In this document: positions 8,159 through 63,739 of the stretch, in pieces
Numbering within the stretch: the stretch's first letter is position 1
Layout of the letters: the number at the start of each line of letters is the position of its first letter
The notes under the pieces: generated by a model
Told to the model about the DNA's origin: nothing
Database searches by the model: none
Seen by the model: only the letters and a program-made list of their open reading frames with translations
Made by a program: the position numbers and the translations under genes
Virus record (IMG/VR): IMGVR_UViG_3300032897_000002
Coordinates: 17,533 to 81,532 of that record
Length of the DNA: 64,000 bases
DNA from: a virus
Strand: one strand, 5' to 3'

Positions 8159-11100
8159 TCAAACTTGTGGTCCTGGTGCAACAATCGGCATCGGAACGGC
8201 GGGTCCGGTCGGATGCTTCGATTTCTCAAGCTCGGCCTGAAATTCGCGGGTCGTTGAAACGTCCGAACCCGTCACCGTGGTATCTCCCCGGCGCTGCAAC
8301 TCCTTCGCCACCGATTCGGCCGGCAGGTCGCTCAGCTTGCCACTGATGTTCATGGGCTTTACAACGGGCTCGGGCGGAGGCACCTTTGCTTTATGCTCAG
8401 AAAAGTGCAGATTAAGGTTGAGGAAAGCTGCCTGTTCCTCGGGACTCCCGTTGGCGAGTTTGCGTCCACGCGGGTCGTTGATCACATCGAGACACGCTTC
8501 CGCCTCCGACGCATGATCGTCTGTGTCGCGCACTGGGACCGTGGAAACAAGGTCTGGCAGCGCGTTGATGGCCGCTTCCATCTGCATAAGGGCCTGTGTC
8601 TCCTCGGGGGTTATCACGACGCCCTGCAACATCTTCGCGGCTGCCTGCGCCTTGGCCTGCTCGAAGGCCATCTGGGCCTGCTGCTTGGCGGGATTGGGAA
8701 CGGGGCCGCTGGCTAGCAGTACATCCAACTCGCCCATTTGTTTGTCGTAGGCGTCGGCCTCGGAGCACTTGAAGTGTCCGATGCGGAACGACTCCATCGC
8801 GGCCCGGATATTGGCGACCTTGCTGAGCAGTTTCATGACGAGCGGGTTGGTGACCTGCATCAGCACGCGGTTCCATGCGGCCTGACGCTGCGCGGGACTC
8901 TCGGAGTACCCGGCATCATCCTGCGGGAAGCACAGCACATTACCCTTGAGGTCGTCAATTTCGATATCGACCGCCTCGCCATTCTTGTCGGTTTGGTGGA
9001 TGGAGGCATTCCGGCAGCGGGCCGCGAGTTGCACGGCCTGGCGATGGTAATTGCAGGTGGCCATCTTCATGGCGTGCCACGGCGTTCCCTGGGTCGCGAG
9101 GGCCTGATCGCGCTGGATTTCGAGAGCGACACCGGATGGATTCGCAACGTCTGTATTGGCCGTGGACCCGAAGAGAGTCGGTAAGGCGTGCACAATCAAC
9201 TGCGGCAACTGCTCGATGAAGTACATGATTAACTGGATCATGAACGGCTGGCCGGTGGGGGTCGGAAACACAAACATGGAGTCGGCTATGGGCTTTCCCG
9301 CCGCTGCGCCTTGAAGCTGCCGCGAGTCCACTGGGATGAACGCCCCCGGATTCGAGCCGGTCTTGTTGAGCGCGTCCACGTCGAACAGCACCGTGTCCAC
9401 TGCGGTGTGCGGGACGCACTTGGTCATGTAGGCATCGGCCAAATCGAGCCAGTTGTTGAGGCGCCGCTGGATGGACGTGAGGCTGGACATGAGGGACTTG
9501 CGGTTCTGGCCTGTACCCGGAAGGGCCTGGATGAGCGTGAGGTGATCATCCATGCACTCATTGCGGGCCTCGATGAACGTGTCCCCGGCCATATAGCACT
9601 TCACGCCGTCGGGGAACGCATCGAACAGTTCACGCCGCACATCGAGGTCTTCCACTTCCATAAACATCGCGGGCCGCATCCAGATGCGATGCAGCGTGAC
9701 ATCCTTTACGAGCGAGTCCCCGGTGACGTAGCTCGCTTCGAGCGACAACGACACGTTGATGCGGGCAATGCGGTCCAGTTCGATTTCGGCCACGCCGGAA
9801 CCACCCGGCTTGATCTTGTCGGCTTTCTTGGGGAACATGGCCTTCAGCCGCGCCACATCGAACTCGCGGGAGACCTTCACGAAATCCATTTCGTCAAGCG
9901 ATTGCGCGACGATGGGGACCTTCGCCTCTAACTTGCCGCAGACCTCCACGACTTCCTGCCCACGCGGGATGCCACGCTTGATGCCGGCCGGTTGAGTGCC
10001 GGTGGATTTGGGGAAGATGGGCCGCATGTCGTAGTTGGCGTCCTCTTTCTGCTCCACCACCGCTACGCCACCCGGAGGCACGTTGGTAATGCCGTAGGGA
10101 ATCTCAGGGTTCAGAAATTGGCCCACAGAACTAATAACCGAATCATGACAGACGATGGCAAACGGTAGCCCCGGAGTTCGCAGCAGGTCCAGAATTGCAG
10201 AAGCAACGCGCTGATTGAACTCCTCGACATTCTCTCCGCCGGGAGCTTCCTCTTCGCCGGTAAAGATTTCGCGTATTTCCTCGGCATTTTTTTGCGCATC
10301 CTCTCCCGTAAGCGTTCCCAGGTCGAAGGCGGCTAGACGGTCATCAACATCGTAAGGCACCCCAAGGGCCTGCGAAACGTATTCGGCCGTCTCCACGCTC
10401 CGCTGTACGGGGCTGCACACAATGCGGCTGATGTTCTTGCCCTTCAGGAATGCCGCTACCTTCTCGGCCTCGCGCCGTCCGAGCTTGTTGAGCGGGTCCT
10501 GCGACTCGCCGCGCAGCTTGCCCTCAGCGTTCTTTTCGGTCTCGCCGTGGCGCACGATGTAGAGCAGGGGATTGTTGACGTGCTCTTCGGTTTCGGGCAC
10601 AACGGGCTCGGCAGGCTCGTTGAGGGGCTCCCGCCCAAAGCGCTGCGCGTCGATAACGTGGTCTGTTATCAACACGACCCGGCCATCGGTACAGAGGTAG
10701 TTGGCGATCTGCATGTGGGTGCCCAGCAGGTCGTTCTGGCTCTCGAACACGCGGGCATAATTGGACGCGGCTTCCTTCGCGGTGATGTCGGCATCGTCCT
10801 CGGGGTCACGCGCCTGGAACTGCACGCCGGGAATGTCACGCGATAGCGCTGCCGTGATGATCTGCTCGTAGCAGCCGTAGATGTTGGTCTCGTTGCCCCA
10901 GAACTTCTTGTTGCGGGTTGTGCCGCCGATGGTGCCGCTGAAACCGAGGGCTACCCAGCCGCCACCACGTCTCGGTAAAAGATATTGATAACCACGGGAA
11001 TAGAGTCTTTGGGACCAAGCGTCTTCAAACTTCCCATCTGCGCGCGGCCAAGTCGCGCCTTGCGGTTGCACCGCACAGGTCTACTAACGTGTTTTCTGCC

Positions 11101-20330: not shown

Positions 20331-20375
20331 GCTCATTCTTTCGTCGGTAGTGTCTCAGTTTGAATTTTCTTGTCC

Positions 20376-20409: not shown

Positions 20410-20631
20410 ATGTCACAGAGACCCCGCGACCAGAACCAGCTTGCCAAGCTGATTGTGGATATTGCCACCGGACAGGCAGAGGATGCGGATAGTGAGGCCA
20501 AGCGACACCCAGAGAGCGTCAGAGGTAGGGCCGGAGGAATTGCAGGCGGAGTGGCAAGAGCGAAAACAATTTCAGCCAAGAAACGCTCCGCAATTGCGAT
20601 GAAAGCAGCTAAATCTCGCTGGAAATCTTAG
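20410..20631 (+). CDS. Small KGG-like/histone-like basic protein
   Basis: 73 residues from ATG 20410 (GGGAGC). The C-terminal half, RGRAGGIAGGVARAKTIS followed by KKRSAIAMKAAKSRW, is a recurring small-protein motif (GG..GG.ARA.....R..IA..AA..RW) found in bacteria and phages, usually as a small nucleic-acid-associated or stress protein. Exact role unknown. Convergent with the Ntn-hydrolase gene. Confidence 0.65.
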   Translation: MSQRPRDQNQLAKLIVDIATGQAEDADSEAKRHPESVRGRAGGIAGGVARAKTISAKKRSAIAMKAAKSRWKS

Positions 20632-20634
20632 CGT

Positions 20635-21378
20635 TCATTGAACAATATCACGGATACGATCTGTGAACCGTTTTAGGGCTGCCTCCCTTTGCTGCTCACT
20701 CGCATTTGAATTCATCACATCGAAAAAGAACTGTTTCAGGAAAAACTCTGCCATGAGCACATCTTGCTCCATGGTTGGGGTCATGGTGGAGCACTCGCGC
20801 AGGCTGCCGCCCGGTAACAGTTCAATCAGGTTAGTATCTCCTCCGCAGCCATCCACAAAGGCTTTTGCCTTAGCCACAAAATATGTCGCAATAACTGCCG
20901 CAGTCTTTATGGTTAGATGGAAAGGGCCGGATAAGAAAAGTGATTCTAGGTACCGGACTATTGAGCTATCCCCTACACCGACGTAATCATACAGAGGAAC
21001 CTCATTAACCGTTATTTTCGATGTTTTGATTAACTGCAAATCGCTGCCGATGGACAAACCGAATAGAGTAAAGAGTCCGTAAGGGTTGGGCATGATGACG
21101 TTCTTCATTCTTGCCAAAGTGGTTTCGATTAGCTTCCTGGTGTTGTGCCCGGTGGGAATATAGTCTGCCTTGCCCATAGAATCGACCAGCCTGTCCTTGA
21201 ACATCATCATTAAGTCAGGATCACCAGCAAAGGTGAAGCAAGCCCAGCCACCCGCACTCGGAAGTTCAATTTCACAAATCTTATTTTGGTGGAATTTGTG
21301 AGAGCCTTGGAAGGTTATTTGAGTGTCCGAACACAGAACGATCCCGTCTACGCACTTAAATCCGACCCCTATAGTCAC
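20635..21378 (-). CDS. Proteasome/HslV-like Ntn hydrolase
   Basis: 247 residues from GTG 21378, chosen because AAGGAGGAAACTT sits just before it; an upstream extension of the frame lacks a ribosome site. Removal of the initiator Met would expose Thr2 as the N-terminal nucleophile. Alignment by eye to proteasome beta subunits: T1 (TIGVGFK), D17 (CSDTQ), a Lys near position 33 (HQNKICEI), and the FTFAGDP strand. This is a threonine-peptidase fold without a propeptide, as in HslV. No ATPase partner or ubiquitin-like tag was seen in the window. It may be a host-derived moron with protease or amidase activity. Confidence 0.8.
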   Translation of the reverse strand: MTIGVGFKCVDGIVLCSDTQITFQGSHKFHQNKICEIELPSAGGWACFTFAGDPDLMMMFKDRLVDSMGKADYIPTGHNTRKLIETTLARMKNVIMPNPYGLFTLFGLSIGSDLQLIKTSKITVNEVPLYDYVGVGDSSIVRYLESLFLSGPFHLTIKTAAVIATYFVAKAKAFVDGCGGDTNLIELLPGGSLRECSTMTPTMEQDVLMAEFFLKQFFFDVMNSNASEQQREAALKRFTDRIRDIVQ

Positions 21379-21599: not shown

Positions 21600-21622
21600 A
21601 CATTTCAAACTGAACTTTGTGC

Positions 21623-21651
21623 TTGACAAGCAATTATTCGTCAAGCATAAT
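21623..21651 (+). promoter_or_regulatory. Promoter of the IS1-like transposase gene
   Basis: TTGACA at 21623-21628, 17-nt spacer, CATAAT at 21646-21651. ATG 21659 lies 7 nt after the -10 box, so the mRNA may be leaderless. Confidence 0.75.
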
Positions 21652-21658
21652 ATTCAGT

Positions 21659-22525
21659 ATGAACCGACTACCCATTGAAGACCGCGCACGAATAATTGGA
21701 ATGTTAATTGAGGGAATGAGCCTCCGCGCCACCAGTCGGCTGGCCGATGTTTCGATTAATACTGTCACAAAACTTCTAGTAGAAGTTGGCATCGCATCTG
21801 CCGAATATCAGGACCGGACCCTGCGCAAACTCAAGTGCAAAAGGATTCAATGCGACGAGATTTGGGCGTTTGTCTACGCCAAAGAGAAGAACGTCCCCAG
21901 TAAATTGAAAGGCAAGTTTGGCTTCGGAGATGTCTGGACCTGGACAGCGATTGACGCTGACACCAAACTGGTTCCCTCCTTCATGGTAGGCAACCGCGAC
22001 GCGCAGACCGCGAACATCTTCATTGACGATCTCAAAAGCCGACTAGCGAACCGCGTGCAACTCACCACCGATGGCCTCAAGGTTTACTTGGAAGCGGTTG
22101 AGGGCGCATTCGGAGCTGACATCGACTACGCCCAACTGGTAAAGATTTATGGTGCCACGCAGGAGGAAGTACGGTACTCGCCTGCCGAATGCTTGGGCTG
22201 CGAAACCAAACGAGTCCAGGGCCATCCTGATCCCAAACACATTTCGACAAGTTATGTTGAACGCCAGAATCTCACGATGCGAATGGGGATGCGCCGCTTC
22301 ACTCGCCTGACTAACGCCTTCTCAAAGAAAGTCGAGAACCACGCCTACCAGGTGGCCCTTCACTTCATGTACTACAATTTCGCCAGAATCCACCAGACCT
22401 TGCGATGCACTCCGGCAATGGAAGCTGGAGTATCCGACCATGTTTGGAGTATCAAGGAAATCGCGGCGCTCCTGCCAGAGCCGACATTCGGACCGCGCGG
22501 ACCGTATAGGAAGAGGGATAAATGA
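21659..22525 (+). CDS. IS1-family-like DDE transposase, form without zinc ribbon
   Basis: 288 residues. N-terminal helix-turn-helix (RIIGMLIEGMSLRATSRLADVSINTVTKLL), then the IS1 catalytic core: D66 (CDEIWAF), D138 (TTDGLKVY) and E201 (SYVERQNLTMRM), followed by RRFTRLTNAFSKK. All catalytic residues are intact in a single frame, unlike the frameshifted InsA-InsB of classic IS1. It overlaps the next gene by 4 bp, so it is part of a two-gene unit. Terminal inverted repeats were not found by eye, so whether it is mobile is unclear. Confidence 0.88.
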   Translation: MNRLPIEDRARIIGMLIEGMSLRATSRLADVSINTVTKLLVEVGIASAEYQDRTLRKLKCKRIQCDEIWAFVYAKEKNVPSKLKGKFGFGDVWTWTAIDADTKLVPSFMVGNRDAQTANIFIDDLKSRLANRVQLTTDGLKVYLEAVEGAFGADIDYAQLVKIYGATQEEVRYSPAECLGCETKRVQGHPDPKHISTSYVERQNLTMRMGMRRFTRLTNAFSKKVENHAYQVALHFMYYNFARIHQTLRCTPAMEAGVSDHVWSIKEIAALLPEPTFGPRGPYRKRDK

Positions 22526-22809
22526 CAGACAAACTGACACTCAAAGAGATGGTTCTTCAGCTTCTCCAAGCTCTCGAATATGACCAATGCCGAACCGCAG
22601 CCATGGCGAAGATTCTGACTGATTGCCCCGACAGAATAACTAGGGCAACATGGCCAGCGAAGGTCAAGAAACTCATAAACGACCCCGCATTGAGGGAGGC
22701 CGTTCATTCCTCATTTGAGCCAATCTACGCCCACATACGCGAAGCACCTGACGGGATGGGCCTTGCCGAATTGCTTGCGAAATTGCCAACAAAAGGGAGA
22801 ATAAATTAG
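22522..22809 (+). CDS. Accessory protein coupled to the transposase gene
   Basis: 95 residues; ATG overlaps the transposase stop (ATGA). Mostly helical (LKEMVLQLLQALEYDQCRTAAMAKIL) with a charged C-terminus. Not recognised. The coupling suggests it belongs to the same element; the second IS1-like gene (29627) instead has a helical gene upstream. Confidence 0.65.
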   Translation: MTDKLTLKEMVLQLLQALEYDQCRTAAMAKILTDCPDRITRATWPAKVKKLINDPALREAVHSSFEPIYAHIREAPDGMGLAELLAKLPTKGRIN

Positions 22810-28136: not shown

Positions 28137-28815
28137 TGTTCTCTTCGGGGGTTTCCTGCTTAGGCATGGTTGATAATCGCTGCCGAATGACCGCTAATTG
28201 CTCAGCGATAAGAATAGGCCCACCATTAGGCCCGGAGACCTCAACCTTGGTCGGGAACAGCGCCAAATGCTTCCCGAGCATCTCAAGCGCTCGCAACCTG
28301 TCTGTCAGCTTGAACTTGCGCAACTGACCGAAGCAATGCTTACCGCTGCCGTCCGCCGCGTCTTCGTACAGGTTCACAAACTCAAAACCGGCCACTGCAT
28401 GGGCGCTCAGGTCATCCAGGTCTTTAATGTCCTTCGCGGTGCCTTTTTCGTCAAAGAAATCTCGAACGTCGTAAGTCGCTGATTTGGCAAGAGCTTGCAG
28501 AACGTCGTCGGCCTTCATTTCGATCTTCTTAGCCTGAATCGCCAAAAGTTCATCAATTCTTGCCCGTATTTTAGGGGTTTTTAGCAGTTTGGCAGCCGAT
28601 ACCGCCGCAGACCTTGGACTGTACCCGGCCCGAACCGCTGCGAGCATCTTCTTGCGGTCAACGATGTACTCACGGCAGAAGCGCTCTTGATTATCAGGGA
28701 GTTTCCCGCCCTTCGTCTGGGATGGCCTGCCCTTGGGTACAGTGGCCCCAGGCTGCACTTTCTCGGGTTGGTGCCCCGCTAATTGTGCGTTGCTGCTTTT
28801 CTGATCTTCGAGCAT
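28108..28815 (-). CDS. terS: Terminase small subunit
   Basis: 235 residues. A basic N-terminus (QTKGGKLPDNQERFCREYI) followed by the small-terminase helix-turn-helix block (AAVRAGYSPRSAAVSAAKLLKTPKIRARIDELL) and a helical oligomerisation region ending in RLRALEMLGKHLALF. Matches the Terminase_2/Nu1-type pattern. It recognises the packaging site and regulates TerL. Confidence 0.9.
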   Translation of the reverse strand: MLEDQKSSNAQLAGHQPEKVQPGATVPKGRPSQTKGGKLPDNQERFCREYIVDRKKMLAAVRAGYSPRSAAVSAAKLLKTPKIRARIDELLAIQAKKIEMKADDVLQALAKSATYDVRDFFDEKGTAKDIKDLDDLSAHAVAGFEFVNLYEDAADGSGKHCFGQLRKFKLTDRLRALEMLGKHLALFPTKVEVSGPNGGPILIAEQLAVIRQRLSTMPKQETPEENNVRALTAGN

Positions 28816-28820
28816 ATAAT

Positions 28821-29051
28821 CTAAGCCGACCTCTCAGTATGAGAGGCTCGCTCCCGGCTTGGAACAGAAAGACTCATCTGCGGAAATATATAACCCTTAT
28901 CCCGTTTGCGCTTGAAAGATCGCAGCGACGCAGAAAGTTGCTTTATCCTGTCTTTCTCCTGCCGAATCTGTTCCTCGGTGTCCGCTATCAGAACATCCCA
29001 AGAAATGTCTCCTGACCTTTCATTTTTTTCTTGACAAACGTCTCTAGACAT
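28821..29051 (-). CDS. Small coiled-coil protein upstream of terS
   Basis: 76 residues from ATG 29051 (AAGGAGCTTATA). Central helix EEQIRQEKDRIKQLSASLRSFKRKRDKG is coiled-coil-like and basic. Its start overlaps the plus-strand promoter of the divergent gene at 29066, so the two units share control DNA. Confidence 0.65.
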   Translation of the reverse strand: MSRDVCQEKNERSGDISWDVLIADTEEQIRQEKDRIKQLSASLRSFKRKRDKGYIFPQMSLSVPSRERASHTERSA

Positions 29052-29059
29052 TATAAGCT
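29031..29059 (+). promoter_or_regulatory. Plus-strand promoter overlapping the divergent start
   Basis: TTGACA at 29031-29036; -10 TATAAG (15-nt spacer) or TAAGCT (17-nt). ATG 29066 follows closely. Confidence 0.55.
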
Positions 29060-29065
29060 CCTTGC

Positions 29066-29503
29066 ATGACAAAGCCTGAATATAAGGAAATCGTTGATCG
29101 GCTTAGAATTAGGCTTACCGAAATCGACACCGAAAGAGCAGAACTTGACGTGCGCCGCTCCGATTTCGACCGGGAGGCCGCAAGCATTAAAGACACCCTT
29201 GCCGACCTGCTGCCGTTGTGCGGGGAAGTTGCCAATCTCGGTGATCTGAGCGGACTTGGATTCACGAACGCGATTCGCGGGGTCATGACTCTCAGGGCCG
29301 GAGAATGGATGTCCGCATCCGCAATAAAAGAAGCACTGGTTCAAGGTGGATTTGAACTCTCGACCTACACAAACCCGATGGCGAGCATCTACAAAATTCT
29401 CTCCCGTCTCAAGGAAGCCAAAGAGATTGAAGTTAAAGATGAAGGAATGAAAACGCTGTACCGAGGTAAACCTAACCTTCCGGTCGTTTCCAAGGTTAGA
29501 TGA
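29066..29503 (+). CDS. Coiled-coil plus winged-helix-like protein
   Basis: 145 residues. Residues 1-55 are a coiled coil (EIVDRLRIRLTEIDTERAELDVRRS); 75-135 resemble a winged helix (LRAGEWMSASAIKEALVQGG... MASIYKILSRLKEAKEIEV). Likely DNA-binding. It is followed by the IS1-like transposase on the same strand and may be its regulator or simply a neighbour. Confidence 0.65.
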   Translation: MTKPEYKEIVDRLRIRLTEIDTERAELDVRRSDFDREAASIKDTLADLLPLCGEVANLGDLSGLGFTNAIRGVMTLRAGEWMSASAIKEALVQGGFELSTYTNPMASIYKILSRLKEAKEIEVKDEGMKTLYRGKPNLPVVSKVR

Positions 29504-29512
29504 AAGTAAGAA

Positions 29513-29545
29513 GCCCTGCCAGTAGTTACGAGCTGCTGACAGGGC
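29513..29545 (+). other. Long near-perfect hairpin before the transposase gene
   Basis: GCCCTGCCAGTAG pairs with CTGCTGACAGGGC (12 of 13 positions) around loop TTACGAG. No U-tract follows. Could be an element end, a translational control structure or a repeat. Confidence 0.5.
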
Positions 29546-29626
29546 CAAATCCAGCACGCGGGGTAAGCCGTATGCCGAATCTCTCAATCGCATTATCGGC
29601 TTGCTACCGCAGAAAGGCAAGCCGAA

Positions 29627-30565
29627 ATGACCTGTCACAACTGCAATTCCCGCTGCAAAGAATTTGGACGCCACCGCAACGGCCTTCAGCGCTTCCGCTG
29701 TAAGCAATGCCGCAAAACCTTTACCGAAGATCACGCCACGCCGCTGGGTGGCATGTATACGCGCCTGGAGGATGCGGCCAGGGTCATAGAACTTTTGACT
29801 GAGGGTTGCTCCGTCAGTAGCACCGAGCGCCTGAGTGGCATTCACCACACCACAATTTTGTCTTTGCTGGCACTGATGGGAGATAAGTGTGAACGGCTCT
29901 TGGAGAACCGGATTACCCGTCTCCCGGTATCCGATGTGCAAGTTGACGAGATATGGGGTTTTGTCGGCTGCAAAGAGCGCCGGAACGTGAACGGCGATCC
30001 GCTGCGCGGGGATGCCTATTGCTTTATCGGCGTTGAGCGTAACACCAAGCTCGTTCTGGCTTGGCACCTCGGAAGGCGAAGCGCCCGCGATACCCTGGCC
30101 TTTACCGAAAAGCTGGAGGGCGCCACGGCGGGACACTTCCAGATTACCACCGATGGCTTTAAGCCCTACTTTGACGCTATCCACACTTGCCTTGGCACCC
30201 GCGTTGACTACGGGCAGCTTATCAAGACCTTCGCCGGCACCACCGACGAAGAACACCGTTATTCGCCACCACAGGTGGTGGACATAACGATTAAACCGAT
30301 GTGGGGCCAGCCTGACCTTGGCCGTATTTGTACCTCGCATGTCGAGCGCAACAACTTGTCTATTCGCATGGGGATGCGGCGAATGACCCGGCTCACCAAT
30401 GCCTTCAGCAAGAAATGGGCAAACCGCAAGGCCGCTTATGCTGTGTGGTTCGCGTTCTATAACTTCTGCCGTGTTCATTGCACCCTTCGCGTTACGCCCG
30501 CCATGGCCGCTGGCATCACTGACCATATCTGGCCGGTCAGGGAACTTGTGGAGGCCGCCGCATGA
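29627..30565 (+). CDS. IS1-family-like DDE transposase, zinc-ribbon form
   Basis: 312 residues. N-terminal zinc ribbon CHNC (3-6) ... CKQC (25-28), as in InsA; a helix-turn-helix region (ARVIELLTEGCSVSSTERLSGI); then the DDE core D107 (VDEIWGF), D176 (TTDGFKPY) and E240 (HVERNNLSIRM) with RRMTRLTNAFSKK. InsA- and InsB-like parts are in one frame. It is only partly similar to the 21659 copy, so the two are not a recent duplication. A terminator follows. Confidence 0.9.
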   Translation: MTCHNCNSRCKEFGRHRNGLQRFRCKQCRKTFTEDHATPLGGMYTRLEDAARVIELLTEGCSVSSTERLSGIHHTTILSLLALMGDKCERLLENRITRLPVSDVQVDEIWGFVGCKERRNVNGDPLRGDAYCFIGVERNTKLVLAWHLGRRSARDTLAFTEKLEGATAGHFQITTDGFKPYFDAIHTCLGTRVDYGQLIKTFAGTTDEEHRYSPPQVVDITIKPMWGQPDLGRICTSHVERNNLSIRMGMRRMTRLTNAFSKKWANRKAAYAVWFAFYNFCRVHCTLRVTPAMAAGITDHIWPVRELVEAAA

Positions 30566-30610
30566 TGACCTTCGGATGTTGGCCGATCTGGCTCAGACCC
30601 CCACCATTTA

Positions 30611-30634
30611 AGCCAGCCCTCCCGGCTGGCTTTT
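30611..30634 (+). terminator. Rho-independent terminator
   Basis: AGCCAGCC/GGCTGGCT stem (8 bp, loop CTCCC) followed by TTT, closing the transposase unit. Confidence 0.75.
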
Positions 30635-30654
30635 GGTATTATTAGCACGTCTTT

Positions 30655-31542
30655 ATGCGCCCAGTACTGAAGTGTATTACCGTGGTCGTCGTCTTGGCAT
30701 CGGTAGGGTTTGTCTGCGCTCAGGGCACGCCAGAAAAGGGGATCGTTAAAGACAACAGTGGTCTCCATACCGAGATATCCACAGACTCCGAGAAGGATAA
30801 AGACCGCACCCAGAATGTAACGGTGGTCGTAAACCCAGAACATCCCCAAAACCTGAAATCCAATGCAAAAGAGACCGACGAAGATATAGACACACAAAGG
30901 AATCTTGTCCGCTTCACAAAGTTGCTTGTTGTCGTCGGCGTTATTCAATCCGTTATTTTGGCTATTACCGGCCTTATTCTCGGCCTCCAGATTTTCGCTA
31001 TGATATCCAGCGAACGCGCTTGGCTCTCGGTCAAAAGGGTCGGCAATCCGCCAGAGGATTGGCTTAATCGCGTTAAGTCGAGTTATGTGGTTGGCGTCAT
31101 ACTGGAATTTAGTGTATTCGGGAAAACTCCAGCTAGAATAACCGAGGCGCGTTTTGCGCTCCGGCTTATTCCAACGAAGAATAACTCTCGACGCCGCGAG
31201 CCCGACCTTCCCGAAAATCCAAACTACGCAGGCATAACCGGACTCGAAATTACGGGTAAGAATACGATTGTTATTGCTCCCGGCGGCGATTTCAGAATCC
31301 AAGAGTTTCTTTCCCCACCCCCCAAGCCGGAGGATTTGGAAGAAACGAGGGACGGCAAGAAAGTATTGTGTGTCTATGGGTTTATCAAGTACAAGGATGC
31401 ATTCGGGAGAGGCAGAGAAACAAGGGCGTGCTTCGTTTATGACTTTTCGTTCGGGGGCATACTCAGAAGCCCCGATGGGATAGTGCTTAATCCGGCTGGC
31501 TTCCGCCCAGGGGGTTCGGCAGCCTACAATCAAGCAACCTAA
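30655..31542 (+). CDS. Exported or membrane-anchored hypothetical protein
   Basis: 295 residues. N-terminal signal-like segment (CITVVVVLASVGFVCAQG), a charged stretch, a transmembrane helix (LLVVVGVIQSVILAITGLILG at about 88-108) and a 180-residue C-terminal region with beta-strand pattern. Such layouts occur in host envelope proteins of unknown role, so this may be a lysogenic-conversion or moron gene. No domain recognised. Confidence 0.7.
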   Translation: MRPVLKCITVVVVLASVGFVCAQGTPEKGIVKDNSGLHTEISTDSEKDKDRTQNVTVVVNPEHPQNLKSNAKETDEDIDTQRNLVRFTKLLVVVGVIQSVILAITGLILGLQIFAMISSERAWLSVKRVGNPPEDWLNRVKSSYVVGVILEFSVFGKTPARITEARFALRLIPTKNNSRRREPDLPENPNYAGITGLEITGKNTIVIAPGGDFRIQEFLSPPPKPEDLEETRDGKKVLCVYGFIKYKDAFGRGRETRACFVYDFSFGGILRSPDGIVLNPAGFRPGGSAAYNQAT

Positions 31543-31983
31543 CAGCAAGCTCAACGAAATACGTCTCGGGCAGATTCCACCCAAACATCAACTCAATCGC
31601 CCTTTTAGCTAGGATGGGGCAGTGTATTTGGATGGCTTCAACCACAGTTCAAAGTTAAATGAACGCCAGAATTGTGCGGGGGTCCGGAAGTTGGCTCCCA
31701 TCCCCAAATTACCTAGCAACGCACTCTTAGCCGAGCACCCTCGGGTTGGCTGATGTCATCCATGCCCCGAATCTAAAGCAGCCAGAATCCGTTGTCAAGC
31801 CCAAAGTGACAAACCACGTCCATGCCATCGACACGATTTGTCATCTTTTAACATTTCGATGGGTTTTAGAGCAATTCCAGTGCCAATGCAAACCAGCAAA
31901 CCCCACACCCTCATTAGCTTACAAACCCATCGAATTTAACTCCTTTCTCGTCTTATGGAACCCAGCTTGCACTAGACTATGGC
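31543..31983. promoter_or_regulatory. Regulatory gap with inverted operator-like sites
   Basis: No convincing gene in 440 bp. Two copies of one site lie in inverted orientation: TTCGATGGGTTT (31855-31866) and AAACCCATCGAA (31924-31935). The same CCYATCGAA core occupies the spacers of promoters at 44964, 45231, 54981 and 56171. The segment ends with TAGACTAT close to the first plus-strand gene. It looks like the control region of the rightward early genes. Confidence 0.6.
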
Positions 31984-58055: not shown

Positions 58056-58550
58056 TCAGTCACTTTCGATTTGAGCGTGAGCCTTGGAGTAGATCGCGCT
58101 CTGATTTTGAAGAATTACGTCACACTTTCTGTCGATGGTTTCGAGCAGCTTGTTCTGTATGAGCATGTAGGGCTCCAGCGCTTCCTTGTGCCCCTGGATG
58201 ATGGCGGACTTCATTTCCGCAATCAGCACCCGAAACTCCGCCGTGGCCGGACACATCGGCGCGGGAACCTGCATAATCGTCTGCTTGCCGTTGCCGTTCT
58301 TCGGAGGGCCAATCCAGCCCATTAGTTTGAGTACCACTGCTCCCATGGTCATAACCGCCACCGCCAACAAAGTTATCACCCCAAGCGAATCCGTTGGGGT
58401 GGTCATGCCACCCTGCTGCGCCCGCCCCTGCAATGGCCATAGCAGCCACGCCGCCACGACCGTTAGCGAGGGTAGCCGGGGTTCGATGTCGAGTCTCCAA
58501 ATTACCCATCCCACATCCACAACCGCATCCACTGCCGCCAGTATGAGCAT
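58056..58550 (-). CDS. Membrane protein with helical tail
   Basis: 164 residues from ATG 58550. Two or three N-terminal hydrophobic stretches (VVAAWLLWPLQGRA; VITLLAVAVMTMGAVVL) then a cytoplasmic helical tail (IQNKLLETIDRKCDVILQNQ). Not recognised. Confidence 0.6.
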   Translation of the reverse strand: MLILAAVDAVVDVGWVIWRLDIEPRLPSLTVVAAWLLWPLQGRAQQGGMTTPTDSLGVITLLAVAVMTMGAVVLKLMGWIGPPKNGNGKQTIMQVPAPMCPATAEFRVLIAEMKSAIIQGHKEALEPYMLIQNKLLETIDRKCDVILQNQSAIYSKAHAQIESD

Positions 58551-58564
58551 AGGGCTCCTGCCCG

Positions 58565-61500
58565 TCACTTCCGATTTTCCGCTGTGGTCATCGTCGGCGC
58601 ACCCGGCCCGCCGATTTGGTAAATGTGAACTTCTTGGTCCTGCCAATTCGAGGACGTGTCCGTGAACGTGTGGCCCGACATGGTGATGGTCCGGCTTTCC
58701 CCGACCACGTTGACCGTGCTCCCTGACGGAATCACGTTCGTCAGCGTGAACGTGGGAGCGTAGGCCGTCCCTCCCGTGCCGTTGGAGTTTATCGACCCGC
58801 ATAGATTCGTCGCGAAGATGTAATACGAACCTCCGATGGCTTTCGTCACGAATCGCACCGGCCCGAACGGGAACAAGGTCGAGTCGGTATAGTTGCCAGC
58901 ACGGGCGGTAATCCCGCACGCGGCTGCGGGGGTCTGGCTGGTGGTGACGTTCGAGACTATCGTGCCCACCCCTGGCGGGTAGTAGCCTGCCATGCCGGTA
59001 GGCGCGGAGCTATCGAGAGTGGGGCTTTCGAGCACGTACTGCCACGAATTGATTTCCTGGCCCAACTGCACGGCGTCGAGATAGGCTTGGGTGTTGGCGT
59101 ACTGGTAATAGAAAATATCCATCGCGTCGCCATTGCCCCAATTCCACATCATGCTCCCGCACCCCAAATTGCCTGTCTCCTCGCAGCCGATGAGTTGCTT
59201 CCAAGCCGCCCGTCGCAATTCGGCATACGGGAAGCCGCGCTCCAGCGAGACCTTCTGGAATTGTTGGATGACACCGAGGTAGCTCTTGGCCCCGTAAGTG
59301 TCCCGGCCCAACACCCACGCCCCCACGTCGCTATTCTGCGGCGCCATCACACCGCCCGAAGTCCCGCTGGTCAAGCCCGTGGAATTGTTGGTGCCGTTGT
59401 AGATGGTCGCATTGCGGCTCTGGTCGCCCGCCCATACCAAGTCTGCTAACGAAGCCGACCCGCAGCAGTAGGGGTCATTACCGACGAGATCAAGCACGTT
59501 CCTCCAGATTCGGTAGGCGGTGTTGTCCACCAACACTCCCCACGAGAACATATCGTAGGAGCCGTTTTGCTGCATACCCGCTGGGCTCATCATCTGCCGC
59601 CAGACGTTTGCGGTGGACTGGGGGTGAGGCTCATCGGCGACGTAGTAGCCCTGTGCACCGGCTTTCTGGCTGCCGTCCATGACGGCCGTGTAGAGTTGCC
59701 AGAAGGAAGGGTCGGTTACCGTAGGCGAGCCGCTCTCCCAACTCGGCCGGCTGAGCAGCGTGGTATCGATGGGAGCAATCTGCTGCACCGACATCGCGGC
59801 CCCAGTCGGCACCACGTAAGTCGAGCCACCCAGCACTGGCGAGCCCACGGGAGTCTGAAGGAAGTAATTCCACGGGTTATTGGGACTGGCCGACGATGCC
59901 TGCGAGATGTAGAAGCCTGTCTGTCCAGTTCCGAGTGCGGGAAGCGTAAGCGTGGAGCCCGCCACCGCCGCGAAGCCCGGTGACGGCAGGCTCACGAGCC
60001 CTGGCGACACCGCTTGGATGATGACGTTCACCGTGGCCGTTCCGGTGCAACTTGAGGTGCAAGTGACAGCGGCAGGGGTGTTTGCGACGGTGTTCGAGGT
60101 GGGCAGAATCGGGCCATAGGCGAAGTTGAGTGACCCCTGGTTGCCGCCGCTGGTGCCGTCGCCAATCAACGTAACGCTCGTCTGGCCGCATGAGACAAAC
60201 GGAGTATTCTCGGCCCCAGAGTAGCTGTAGAAGGCATCGCCGGAAGGTGCCGTGGAATTGCTGGTGCTTGCAGCGACGTGAATTCCCCAGCCGATTTGCC
60301 GACCCTGGCAACTTGGCAAGGCCACTGTCACGTAGTTATTCGTCGCATTCGCAAACGCGCTTGACGACACCACCGCCGCGCTCGTCATGCCGCGCTGGAG
60401 CGTGTTTCCGGCCTGCCCGAGAGACGACCAGTATTTAGGTACGATTTCGACCCACGCATAATGGGTGCCGTCGTCCTTGATGTCGCCCGATCCACCTTGA
60501 CCTATCGTGACGGAGCTTGGTGAGGTCGGAATCGTGTTGGCCGAATCCTGGCCCGCTTCGTCCCACCCTGTACCGTACAGGGTGTTGGAGATTTGGAAGT
60601 GGCTGAAGCCATAGACCTGCGCGACGGTGAGCCACGGGCTTAGCTGATCGCTTCCCGGCGTCACGTTGACGGCGGGGAATAGGTTGAATGGCGACATGAG
60701 CGAATTGAAGTTGTTGATCTGGTAGTCGAGGACCGCTTGGCTTCCATTCGTCGTAATCAACATGCCGCTGTGCGTGGCGTTGCTGGTACTGAGGGGCGGT
60801 GTCGAGCCCATGCCTGCAATCAGATTTTCGTAACTCGTTGTCGCACCGAATCCCGAGTAGAGCCCCGGACTTGTTCCGGTCCTATTTTTCGCGGTCCAAC
60901 TGTCGTAGGCCCCCCAGTCGATTTGGCGCTGGGATCGGTGGACAATGGCTCCATCCGAATCAGAGTAGTTGGTGAGCGTGGCCCGAAACGCAGGAGACAC
61001 ATAGTAGAACCGGTAGTCCGGTATCGTGTACGTCACTGAGTTCACAGTTGCAGCCGTGCAGACGTAATAGGCCGTGGCAGGGGGATTCTCTGCGGCGTTC
61101 CCCAGGCCCGCAATCCATGTGGCCGCATCGAAGTTCCAATGCACCACTCCCAGGTTCCATGCCCCAAAGGTTTGAGGCAGCGTGACCGTCTGGGTGGGTG
61201 GCGTAATCGAGATCGTCTGGCGATGCCCCGTGGCGTTGGCGCAACCCGCCGCTGTATCGACGTAGAGTGCTACCGAGTAGGTACTGAAGTTGGTATCGCC
61301 CGCATTGAAAGCGGAGTAGGGCATGGCCAATTCAATGTTCCCTGCGATTTTTCCAGCAGCCGGTGAAGGACCGTAATAGGTCTGTGAGGGAACCTTGTCG
61401 CTCCACAAGTAGCCGTGGAAATTGGGATAGGTAATGTCATTTTGAAGCGGGAAATCTGCCTCGACCACAGAGGGCTCTGCAATCCAAATCGTTCCCGCTG

Positions 61501-63739
61501 TTGTGCCGGGGCTTGGGAATCGGATGTCTAACTGGAGGGTATCGCCCACGTAAAGCCGCGAGTTGAGCCAGATTTCACGATATTCCTGAATCCATCCTGA
61601 GTTTGCGGGGATAGCAATGGTGAGGCCGTTGCTTGAGGATATGTCCATCGGCGCGACCCGGCCCACGGCGGAATTCGAGAACACGCTGCCCAGTGTAATG
61701 TTCACCACTGGATCATCCATCTGGGCAGCATAGGAACTATCCGTTTTCACCCAGAATGACAACTGGAGAGTCTTTCCACCCGAGTAGGTAAGCTGCTGCG
61801 AGATGATGCCATTCACCCCCGCGCTTCCGCAAGAGGTCACCTTGAGGGACCGCCCTACCGCCGTGAGGTGATAGACGGTGTTATCGACCACGGCCCCAGA
61901 ACAGTTCGAGAGGCTCCAGGGCGCACCGGGCGCGTTGCCGGGAGTGTCGCCAGCGAAGTCGGTGTCACTCCAAAGATTCGTAGTGGTCGGCGTGCTGGGC
62001 CAGGGTGGAATGGCCGTGATGCCGCCGATGGGAAGTGGGAGCGTGGCAGGACCGTACTGGTAGGCCCCCATGTCCCACGCGCTGGACACGGGCCTAAATA
62101 CATTAGCCAAGTCATAATCCAACTGGGATACCCCAAGGCCAGTCAAGTTTGCCGCTGCCGAACGTGCTGGAGAGCTTGAACTGAGGCCGTAGGTGACCGT
62201 CAGCAAGGGATTCGACGTGATACTGTGGGCATCGGGACTAGCACCGTTGAAAAATGTCTTCGTCTTCCAATTCGTGTAAGTGACGTATCCCGTGCGGAAA
62301 TAAAACTGGTTGCTGCCAAGTCCGTAATAGGTATTGTAATCGGAGAGGGTCATGTCGGTTGCGGAACCGTTCATGTTCACCCCGATTTGGCAATTCGAGA
62401 TGTTATTTTCCCAAGTCTCACCACCGCCGCTGTTGATGATGAACGGGTAGCTTTGGCTGGACGATGAGCAGACTACGGTGTTGTTGTAGAAGGCGTTGTG
62501 CGAGCCATCGTAGACACTTCCACCCCCACTATGCGCGTCCGAGCCTGCCTGGACATAGGTAAATTGCGTGGGGGACGTGACGGTGATCTGAAACGTGCCT
62601 TGAAAGGAAGTATCGGAAGTTCCGTAGATGAAATCCCACTCACCGCTCGTCCGGTTATGGGCACTGGTAGTCGTAACTGTGACCACTCCTCCGCTTCGGC
62701 ACAGTCCCGCCGATCCGCACACGGCATTGTCGGCCGCAATCGTGGCCTTTGAGACGGCCTTGGTATACAAGTTTCCAGCCGCATAATTGTTCGTGCCCGT
62801 GGACACGCAAAGATTGTTGAACACCAGGGCTCCCGAAATCTGTTCCAACTCAAGGCACGCTGTCGCGTTGATGCCGGGATCGCCCACCATCGTATTGTTG
62901 AAAATCATGGCGCCCGTCGTAGAGGACCCGGTTTGCACCATGTAATAGTGTATGGGAGCGTCGTGGATTCCGCTCCCATCCCAGTATGTGTTGGGGGAAA
63001 GGACGTTGTTATAGACCCAGATATTGGTGGCGATGGCATTCGCCCCGCCGTCACCCACGTTGATGGCGACGGAAGAGCAGCAGGACGAATTGCTGTAGAT
63101 GCTTTCGTTCTGGGTATTGTAGCCTCCGTTGTAGGTGACGACGATGCACCACCACATGATCCCCGTGCAGGCGTTGCCGTGAATCAGGCCGTTGGTATCG
63201 TTCCAGGTCGTAATCCCGAACCCGAAGGCGTTGGCGTCCGCTGAGCCCTGAAAGCGATACCAGAGTTGCCCGATGTTCCAATTCCGGATCTCGACGTTCG
63301 TCCCGTACTCGCTGACAATCCCATCCGTCTGCTGCTGGTAGGTGAGTCCTACGCCGTTCTGTGTGGAGCTAATCGTTCCGCCGTTGCCGTCCAGGATGAT
63401 GTAGCTCTTCCCGTTCACGTTGATGGCCCCGGTGGTGGGCCAGGCATAGTTCACAAAAGAACACGGTGAGCCAGCGTCGCAGACAATCGTGATGGGATTC
63501 CCCGCGCTTCCACTTGCCTGCACGGTCAGAGCAGTTGACGTGTTGTCGGTGTAGGTAAAGGCCCCGCACAGATGGATGGTGTCGCCCGCCGTGTAGTGTC
63601 CAGCCGTGTTAAACCACGCGGCAGAATTGGCGCTGGCACAGGAGCTTCCCGCGCCTCCTCCCGCTTGGGTCACGTAGTAGGTCGCAGCGTACCCTTGCGA
63701 AACAAAAAACAAAATGGCAATGAACCAGAGGTTTTTCAT
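58565..63739 (-). CDS. Giant exported protein: beta-helix plus glycosidase-like region
   Basis: 1724 residues. Signal peptide MKNLWFIAILFFVSQGYA, then about 480 residues of parallel beta-helix-like repeats (IILDGNGGTISS, VEIRNWNIG, GLIHGNACTG, ANSNSSC-like turns) as in pectate-lyase/polysaccharide-lyase folds. The middle has a carbohydrate-binding-like block (WSDTDFAGDTPG, WSLSNCSGAVVDN). From about residue 1000 a barrel-like region has HFQISN, YYVADEPHP and MMWNWGNGDAM, similar to glycoside-hydrolase active-site blocks. Probably degrades or binds surface polysaccharide. A Sec signal is unusual for a tail spike. Confidence 0.7.
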   Translation of the reverse strand: MKNLWFIAILFFVSQGYAATYYVTQAGGGAGSSCASANSAAWFNTAGHYTAGDTIHLCGAFTYTDNTSTALTVQASGSAGNPITIVCDAGSPCSFVNYAWPTTGAINVNGKSYIILDGNGGTISSTQNGVGLTYQQQTDGIVSEYGTNVEIRNWNIGQLWYRFQGSADANAFGFGITTWNDTNGLIHGNACTGIMWWCIVVTYNGGYNTQNESIYSNSSCCSSVAINVGDGGANAIATNIWVYNNVLSPNTYWDGSGIHDAPIHYYMVQTGSSTTGAMIFNNTMVGDPGINATACLELEQISGALVFNNLCVSTGTNNYAAGNLYTKAVSKATIAADNAVCGSAGLCRSGGVVTVTTTSAHNRTSGEWDFIYGTSDTSFQGTFQITVTSPTQFTYVQAGSDAHSGGGSVYDGSHNAFYNNTVVCSSSSQSYPFIINSGGGETWENNISNCQIGVNMNGSATDMTLSDYNTYYGLGSNQFYFRTGYVTYTNWKTKTFFNGASPDAHSITSNPLLTVTYGLSSSSPARSAAANLTGLGVSQLDYDLANVFRPVSSAWDMGAYQYGPATLPLPIGGITAIPPWPSTPTTTNLWSDTDFAGDTPGNAPGAPWSLSNCSGAVVDNTVYHLTAVGRSLKVTSCGSAGVNGIISQQLTYSGGKTLQLSFWVKTDSSYAAQMDDPVVNITLGSVFSNSAVGRVAPMDISSSNGLTIAIPANSGWIQEYREIWLNSRLYVGDTLQLDIRFPSPGTTAGTIWIAEPSVVEADFPLQNDITYPNFHGYLWSDKVPSQTYYGPSPAAGKIAGNIELAMPYSAFNAGDTNFSTYSVALYVDTAAGCANATGHRQTISITPPTQTVTLPQTFGAWNLGVVHWNFDAATWIAGLGNAAENPPATAYYVCTAATVNSVTYTIPDYRFYYVSPAFRATLTNYSDSDGAIVHRSQRQIDWGAYDSWTAKNRTGTSPGLYSGFGATTSYENLIAGMGSTPPLSTSNATHSGMLITTNGSQAVLDYQINNFNSLMSPFNLFPAVNVTPGSDQLSPWLTVAQVYGFSHFQISNTLYGTGWDEAGQDSANTIPTSPSSVTIGQGGSGDIKDDGTHYAWVEIVPKYWSSLGQAGNTLQRGMTSAAVVSSSAFANATNNYVTVALPSCQGRQIGWGIHVAASTSNSTAPSGDAFYSYSGAENTPFVSCGQTSVTLIGDGTSGGNQGSLNFAYGPILPTSNTVANTPAAVTCTSSCTGTATVNVIIQAVSPGLVSLPSPGFAAVAGSTLTLPALGTGQTGFYISQASSASPNNPWNYFLQTPVGSPVLGGSTYVVPTGAAMSVQQIAPIDTTLLSRPSWESGSPTVTDPSFWQLYTAVMDGSQKAGAQGYYVADEPHPQSTANVWRQMMSPAGMQQNGSYDMFSWGVLVDNTAYRIWRNVLDLVGNDPYCCGSASLADLVWAGDQSRNATIYNGTNNSTGLTSGTSGGVMAPQNSDVGAWVLGRDTYGAKSYLGVIQQFQKVSLERGFPYAELRRAAWKQLIGCEETGNLGCGSMMWNWGNGDAMDIFYYQYANTQAYLDAVQLGQEINSWQYVLESPTLDSSAPTGMAGYYPPGVGTIVSNVTTSQTPAAACGITARAGNYTDSTLFPFGPVRFVTKAIGGSYYIFATNLCGSINSNGTGGTAYAPTFTLTNVIPSGSTVNVVGESRTITMSGHTFTDTSSNWQDQEVHIYQIGGPGAPTMTTAENRK

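What the first reader, a model, noticed from the sequence alone, without database searches (positions are those of the whole stretch)
20635..21378. Stand-alone proteasome-like Ntn hydrolase in a phage-like genome
Correct positions for Thr1, Asp17 and a Lys near 33, and a start codon that would expose Thr1 after Met removal. No ATPase, tag or second subunit is nearby. Phage-borne proteasome-fold enzymes are rare, and a role in counter-defence, capsid maturation or host control is open.
Basis: partly seen in the sequence, partly recalled or inferred. Interest (0 to 1): 0.72.

Follow-up and report, generated by a model that had tools for sequence, protein, structure and literature searches.

The report
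Proteasome-like enzyme carried by transposons
The phage gene does encode an enzyme with the proteasome fold, but it is not a phage gene proper: it belongs to a family of cargo genes that two kinds of small jumping DNA elements carry around in soil bacteria and their phages.

Summary
The ORF at 20635-21378 (-) is real and encodes a proteasome-fold Ntn hydrolase. AlphaFold2 (pLDDT 80.5) puts model residue Thr2 on Thr1 of proteasome beta subunits (VIA Z up to 23); Asp and Lys are in place. In 58 of 60 homologous loci a start codon directly precedes Thr (56) or Ser (2).

The phage reading does not hold. The neighbour (21617-22525) is an IS1-family transposase, and a terminal inverted repeat (TIR) lies at 20346. 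Of 60 homologous loci (56 in Acidobacteriota genomes, 4 viral contigs), 34 have an IS1- or IS1595-type transposase beside the gene. In 25, paired TIRs and an exact 8-bp target duplication enclose it (mismatched controls 0 and 2 of 3540). It is cargo of "transporter IS" elements; the window copy keeps only one end. On the protein tree the two IS types are mixed as by chance, so the gene has changed vehicle repeatedly. Of 30 IS1-like elements sampled 10 carry it, so it is not needed for transposition.

Six literature searches found no proteasome homolog as IS cargo. What the enzyme does is not shown; my inference is an ATPase-independent peptidase acting on host or rival proteins.

The parts
20346..20367 (+). 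left terminal inverted repeat, GGTAGTGTCTCAGTTTGAATTT, outer end at 20346
   Evidence: 16 of 16 specified bases of the family TIR pattern; next best place in the whole window 11 of 16; sequence read
20410..20631 (+). 73-aa small accessory gene (KRPRDxNQLAK ... GG.ARA..KR..IA.KAA.ARW type), just inside the TIR
   Evidence: homolog in the same place in L015, L011, G009; cluster of 15 of 60 loci, the 12 printed all with IS1-type ends or transposase; also in 5 of 6 delimited IS1-type elements without Ntn; no Pfam or NCBIfam match
20635..21378 (-). proteasome-like Ntn hydrolase, 247 aa, GTG start, Thr1
21617..22525 (+). IS1-family DDE transposase, single ORF (Met start probably at 21659), head-to-head with the Ntn gene
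   Evidence: Pfam DDE_Tnp_IS1 31.4 bits, cut-off 24.1; 59-62% identical to transposases beside Ntn in L015, L011, G009
22522..22809 (+). 95-aa ORF overlapping the transposase stop; membership in the element uncertain, since no right TIR was found
   Evidence: no family match of note; right-end search to 36000 negative

Best explanation
The gene is cargo of a transporter insertion sequence: an IS1-family element (TIR, small accessory gene, proteasome-like Ntn hydrolase, DDE transposase) that inserted into an Acidobacteriota phage and later lost its right end or had it decay. Shown: fold, conserved N-terminal Thr/Ser behind the start codon, Asp and Lys; recurrent placement of homologs inside IS1- and IS1595-type elements with TIRs and 8-bp target duplications; exchange between the two IS types. 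Inferred: that the phage's host is an Acidobacteriota bacterium (from its relatives only); that Met removal frees Thr1, which attacks amide or peptide bonds with Lys33/Asp17 help. Inferred function (about 0.45 for this part): a self-sufficient peptidase, oligomeric like Anbu or HslV but without a dedicated ATPase, acting in trans on unfolded or specific host or rival-element proteins, and so repaying the carrier. It is not part of the transposition machinery. The confidence given is for the cargo statement.
For: Transposase beside Ntn in 34 of 60 loci: 19 IS1, 15 IS1595. Near window (-1500..+3000) 34 hits, remaining flanks 1. Background is only 130 IS1-like matches in 151 genomes and 78 IS1595 matches in 61. 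TIR pair plus exact 8-bp duplication enclosing Ntn: 21 of 60 motif-guided, control 0 of 3540; 23 of 60 motif-free, control 2 of 3540; union 25. Start codon lies inside the element in 25 of 25 (L067 and L083 read by eye from that output). L109 is a 1411-bp element with Ntn alone, sharing its TIR with L086/L104. In phage G009 the element (58480-61554, GGCGAAGG both sides) splits what becomes a 147-aa frame when the flanks are joined; G009 has TerL and portal. IS labels scatter on the Ntn tree: 26 changes, shuffled mean 25.3. 10 of 30 best IS1-like transposases have Ntn within 1.5 kb.
Against: The window copy has only one TIR and no target duplication. 20 of 60 loci carry no IS signature by the rule, although L109 and L101 among them show element ends. 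L107/L110/L112 are near-identical and share a chromosomal neighbourhood, so some copies look resident. G008 has no transposase. L117 (same locus as L015) has 28/28 TIRs but no duplication. No biochemical evidence; the substrate is unknown; the oligomer was not modelled. The survey is confined to Acidobacteriota; an even draw over the phylum gave only 2 of 199 genomes.
Confidence: 0.9

Rival explanations
1. A phage gene proper: a phage-encoded protease for counter-defence, capsid maturation or host take-over; the transposase next door is coincidence.
For: It lies in a phage record with TerL and TerS. Phage families of proteasome homologs exist (PPH, AAH; PMC8665760), and 21 viral predicted structures match at E<=1e-3. 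The window copy has only one TIR.
Against: 56 of 60 homologous loci are bacterial. Two of the three viral contigs with a long Ntn frame (window, G009) have an IS1 transposase and TIR beside it, and G009 has both TIRs and the duplication. No PADLOC match for 5 Ntn proteins tested.
Confidence: 0.06
2. A regulator of transposition: the Ntn hydrolase cleaves or processes the transposase (or a host factor common to IS1 and IS1595 elements) and so controls copy number.
For: Recurrent in two transposase families that are said to be related (title of Siguier 2009, seen only in the reference list of PMC3129680); compact tail-to-tail packing, 11 of 19 IS1 cases with stops within about 31 bp of each other.
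Against: 20 of 30 best IS1-like loci lack it within 1.5 kb. On the Ntn tree the IS labels are scattered as by shuffling, unlike a partner that co-evolves with one transposase. One element holds Ntn alone (L109).
Confidence: 0.2
3. Host chromosomal genes caught by chance between IS copies (composite transposon or gene capture), with no lasting tie.
For: Some loci have no IS signature (20 of 60), and three of them are syntenic.
Against: Single TIR pairs with 8-bp duplications around a compact unit in 25 of 60 loci, the same order in distant elements, and catalytic residues kept at 20-50% identity.
Confidence: 0.06

Closest known systems
Proteasome-like family of Fuchs, Alva and Lupas 2021 (22 new homolog groups; PPH, AAH, CPH, PMI-4, DAH marked in phages)
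   Same: Fold, Thr1/Asp/Lys, no propeptide, no AAA+ partner recognised nearby, presence in phages
   Different: That paper reports no informative genomic context; here the context is IS1/IS1595 elements. Not PPH (247 aa against about 140, first two helices present). No large H3/H4 insertion as in PMI-2 to PMI-6. Their alignments were not available to me, so the exact group is open.
Anbu (PDB 5nyg, 5nyw)
   Same: Best Foldseek match (TM 0.71-0.72), C-terminal helical extension, no known ATPase
   Different: About 13% identity; transposon-borne; oligomer unknown
HslV / phrog_1040 'peptidase HslV family'
   Same: Ntn threonine fold; weak phrog hit (E 0.0047)
   Different: No HslV model match in NCBIfam
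Transporter IS (tIS), notably the IS1595 family (concept cited in ISsaga, PMC3129680)
   Same: IS with TIRs, duplication, transposase and an unrelated passenger gene
   Different: The passenger is a proteasome-like enzyme, shared between IS1- and IS1595-type elements; I found no report of this

Membership tests
Proteasome-like Ntn hydrolases | proteasome beta-like fold | tested here: met
   AF2 pLDDT 80.5; Foldseek and VIA matches to Anbu and 20S beta, Z up to 23
Proteasome-like Ntn hydrolases | N-terminal Thr/Ser nucleophile | tested here: met
   start codon directly before Thr/Ser in 58 of 60 loci; model residue 2 aligned on beta residue 1
Proteasome-like Ntn hydrolases | Asp17 and Lys33 | tested here: met
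   Asp 54 of 54; in another alignment Asp 51 and Lys 48 (Arg 3) of 53
Proteasome-like Ntn hydrolases | oxyanion-hole Gly47 | tested here: inconclusive
   Gly52 (Met counted) invariant in 7 of 7 and 9 of 9, but geometry not inspected
Proteasome-like Ntn hydrolases | ring or other oligomer, peptidase activity | not testable with these tools
   needs protein
PPH (phage proteasome homolog) | about 140 residues, lacks helix H2 | tested here: not met
   247 aa with helices 54-68 and 77-90
PMI groups 2 to 6 | insertion between helices H3 and H4 | tested here: not met
   helices 138-147 and 157-174 joined by 9 residues in the model
HslV | HslV sequence family | tested here: not met
   no NCBIfam match at E<=0.1; only a weak phrog_1040 hit, E 0.0047
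Anbu | Anbu sequence family and split-ring assembly | tested here: inconclusive
   closest fold, about 13% identity, no NCBIfam match; assembly not testable
IS1 family | IS1-type DDE transposase | tested here: met
   PF03400 31.4 bits against cut-off 24.1
Transporter IS: the homologous elements | TIR pair, target duplication and transposase around a passenger | tested here: met
   24 of 60 loci with a transposase, plus L109 without one
Transporter IS: the window copy itself | TIR at both ends and target duplication | tested here: not met
   left TIR only; no right TIR or duplication found to 36000. I therefore call it a one-ended remnant, not a complete element.

The most novel reading that the evidence does not exclude
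Proteasome-like N-terminal-Thr hydrolases are a dedicated effector class of the IS1/IS1595 transposon world: a proteolytic cargo that passes from one transposon family to another because it gives any small element an advantage, for example by destroying host factors that silence or degrade mobile DNA, and that rides these elements into phages.
Probability: 0.25. Interest if true: 0.87.

Novelty: new variant of a known kind. Interest (0 to 1): 0.72.

Why it matters
Many prokaryotic proteasome homologs have no known function, and the survey that described them found no telling genomic context (PMC8665760, section 4). Here one group has a clear and repeated context: it is cargo of two IS families and is swapped between them. 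That turns an orphan enzyme into a testable question (what does a small transposon gain from a threonine protease?), warns that IS-borne copies in phages are not phage weapons by default, and adds a catalytic cargo class to transporter ISs.

Tried and rejected
Rejected: phage-specific role, chance capture, transposition regulator (see rivals). Window protein against phages and plasmids by tblastn: no match; L015, L066 and L069 Ntn against plasmids: no match (the L066 query carried 21 residues upstream of its likely start). PDB sequence search with the single protein: none. PADLOC: none for 8 proteins. Viral scans with the window protein, its N-terminus, alignment A1 and the L069 protein gave at most the two records already found. 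The first DNA pattern was faulty, as it would not have matched the window itself; its zero says nothing. Right TIR of the window element: not found. A motif-free TIR search at a lax threshold had 48 of 707 false positives, so only hits of at least 16/20 are used. Dropped before counts: L006 (alike only in the searched motif; no Proteasome match) and L025 (C-terminal fragment at a contig end). VIA absence of other families is not used as evidence.

Paper use: PMC8665760 parts 1-4 of 6 of the whole text and passages; PMC3129680 passages only; all others search listings only; Siguier 2009 seen only as a reference-list entry. Recalled, from no call: that 8-9-bp duplications are usual for IS1/IS1595, and the GGT start of IS1 ends.

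Full report
1. The observation. The ORF 20635-21378 on the minus strand is there. It begins with GTG at 21378, with AAGGAGG just upstream. With Met removed the protein starts with Thr1 and has Asp17 and Lys32. Pfam's Proteasome model scores it below its cut-off (13.9 against 22.4 bits), but relatives score above it or match the archaeal beta-subunit model (P0002; L011 E 6e-10, below that model's curated cut-off). AlphaFold2 on a seven-sequence alignment gives pLDDT 80.5 and pTM 0.78. Foldseek's best PDB matches are Anbu (TM 0.71-0.72) and proteasome beta. VIA-align gives Z up to 23 and lays model residue 2 (Thr) on residue 1 of beta subunits. So the fold claim stands.

2. Conservation of the nucleophile. 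I assembled 60 loci that encode relatives: 4 viral contigs (window, L005, G008, G009) and 56 bacterial loci, from the search for related loci (7 loci, all Acidobacteria MAGs), one from a draw over the phylum, and the rest from a profile search of 399 genomes of one class, of which 48 had a match at E<=1e-8. The even draw over the phylum gave only 2 of 199. In all 54 loci whose N-terminus aligned, the codon before Thr (53) or Ser (1) is ATG (34), GTG (18) or TTG (2), and Asp18 (Met counted) is present in 54 of 54. Of the remaining six, L083, L093 and L102 have start codon plus Thr, L067 start codon plus Ser, and L091 and L101 neither. Lys33 is Lys in 48 and Arg in 3 of 53. Selection is therefore keeping a free N-terminal nucleophile and its partners.

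3. The neighbour. The gene at 21617-22525 is an IS1-family transposase over Pfam's cut-off. A cross-comparison of neighbourhoods showed the same transposase beside the Ntn gene in unrelated Acidobacteria contigs and in another phage. Around those pairs lie inverted repeats beginning GGTAGTGG. In G009 the element is 3075 bp with GGCGAAGG on both sides; in L011 it is 3533 bp with GGGCCCCC on both sides; L015 has 28 of 28 matching ends but no duplication. In the window the left end is at 20346 and matches the pattern at 16 of 16 specified bases, the next best place in the window at 11. A small gene of the same kind lies just inside it, as in the other elements. I found no right end up to 36000. 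The window copy is thus a one-ended remnant or a copy with a decayed end.

4. How general this is. Of 60 loci, 19 have an IS1-like and 15 an IS1595-like transposase (Pfam PF12762 for the L070 example) within -1500 to +3000 of the Ntn frame, 6 more only a TIR, and 20 neither by that rule. In the rest of the same +-5 kb windows there is one such hit. The transposases are not so common as to explain this: 130 IS1-like matches in 151 genomes (my sum) and 78 IS1595 matches in 61 genomes (my sum). TIR pairs with an exact 8-bp duplication enclosing the Ntn gene: 21 of 60 with motif-guided ends, against 0 of 3540 pairings of left and right ends from different loci; 23 of 60 with no motif assumed and at least 16 of 20 TIR identity, against 2 of 3540. 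The union is 25: 13 IS1-type, 11 IS1595-type, and L109, which carries the Ntn gene alone between ends like those of L086 and L104. The Ntn start codon is inside the element in all 25. In G009 joining the flanks gives a 147-aa frame across the site, which the element interrupts; that record has terminase and portal genes.

5. Exchange between vehicles. A tree of 53 Ntn proteins needs 26 changes of the label IS1/IS1595/none, against a shuffled mean of 25.3. Close pairs differ in vehicle: L066 (IS1) and L067 (IS1595), 49% identical, support 100/93; the window protein and L069 (an IS1595-type element with duplication AATTGTTT), 39% over the best-aligned part, support 100/95. Conversely, 20 of the 30 best IS1-like transposase loci lack an Ntn gene within 1.5 kb (one of the ten positives, L123, is weak at E 6.5e-4), and six delimited elements among them carry other passengers, five of six with the small gene. 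So the Ntn gene is neither required by, nor loyal to, one transposase.

6. How it works. Shown by sequence and model: an Ntn hydrolase with a conserved active site, carried as its own gene, usually tail-to-tail with the transposase (11 of 19 IS1, 12 of 15 IS1595). Inferred: Met removal, then a threonine nucleophile acting on peptide or amide bonds; probably an oligomer of Anbu type because of the C-terminal helices. I recognised no unfoldase with it, so unfolded or specific substrates are likelier than bulk degradation. Who benefits is open. The scatter over two IS types and the Ntn-only element favour a cargo function over a role in transposition.

7. What is known. Fuchs, Alva and Lupas (PMC8665760; parts 1-4 of the text read) describe 22 groups of proteasome homologs, some in phages, and state that no genomic context suggestive of a function was found. 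ISs with passenger genes (transporter ISs) are known, and the ISsaga paper cites the IS1595 family paper for them (PMC3129680, passages). Six searches aimed at proteasome homologs as IS or transposon passengers, or at passengers of these IS families, returned no report of it in the held open-access library; two on proteasome homologs as such did not either. Subscription papers and ISfinder itself were not available to me.

8. Limits. All genome loci come from Acidobacteriota; other phyla could not be reached. The window's own element is incomplete. Function is inferred, not shown.

Noticed in passing
window 28770-31739: A second IS1-like element in the same phage: TIRs matching 14 of 18, perfect 8-bp duplication CTCGGGTT, transposase 29627-30565 (+), and a 295-aa passenger with an apparent membrane segment at 30655-31542 (+) that matches no Pfam or PADLOC model. 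It sits about 5 codons into the terminase small subunit frame.
   Followed up: partly
L127, L128, L131, L138, L144, L145: IS1-like elements with TIRs and 8-bp duplications but no Ntn gene carry other unnamed passengers (up to 359 aa); the small ...ARW gene is in 5 of these 6.
   Followed up: partly
window 20410-20631; L066 9468-9785; L011 12496-12732: Small gene family (73-105 aa, C-terminus GG.ARA..KR..IA.KAA.ARW) at one end of IS1-type elements with no NCBIfam match, and no Pfam match for the two tested; a candidate accessory DNA-binding protein of the transposon.
   Followed up: no
ON529850.1 about 171.8-178.7 kb (L149): The jumbo Brevundimonas phage vB_BpoS-Gurke has a nearly unannotated stretch with an IS1-like transposase (32.5% identity to the window's); no TIR pair with duplication found.
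   Followed up: partly
L107, L110, L112: Near-identical Ntn genes in a shared chromosomal neighbourhood without IS signature: possibly resident copies.
   Followed up: no
window 8159-11071 (-): 970-aa phage protein with a histidine phosphatase domain in its first third (His_Phos_1 E 1.4e-32).
   Followed up: no
window 58565-63739 (-): 1724-aa ORF without a PHROG match.
   Followed up: no
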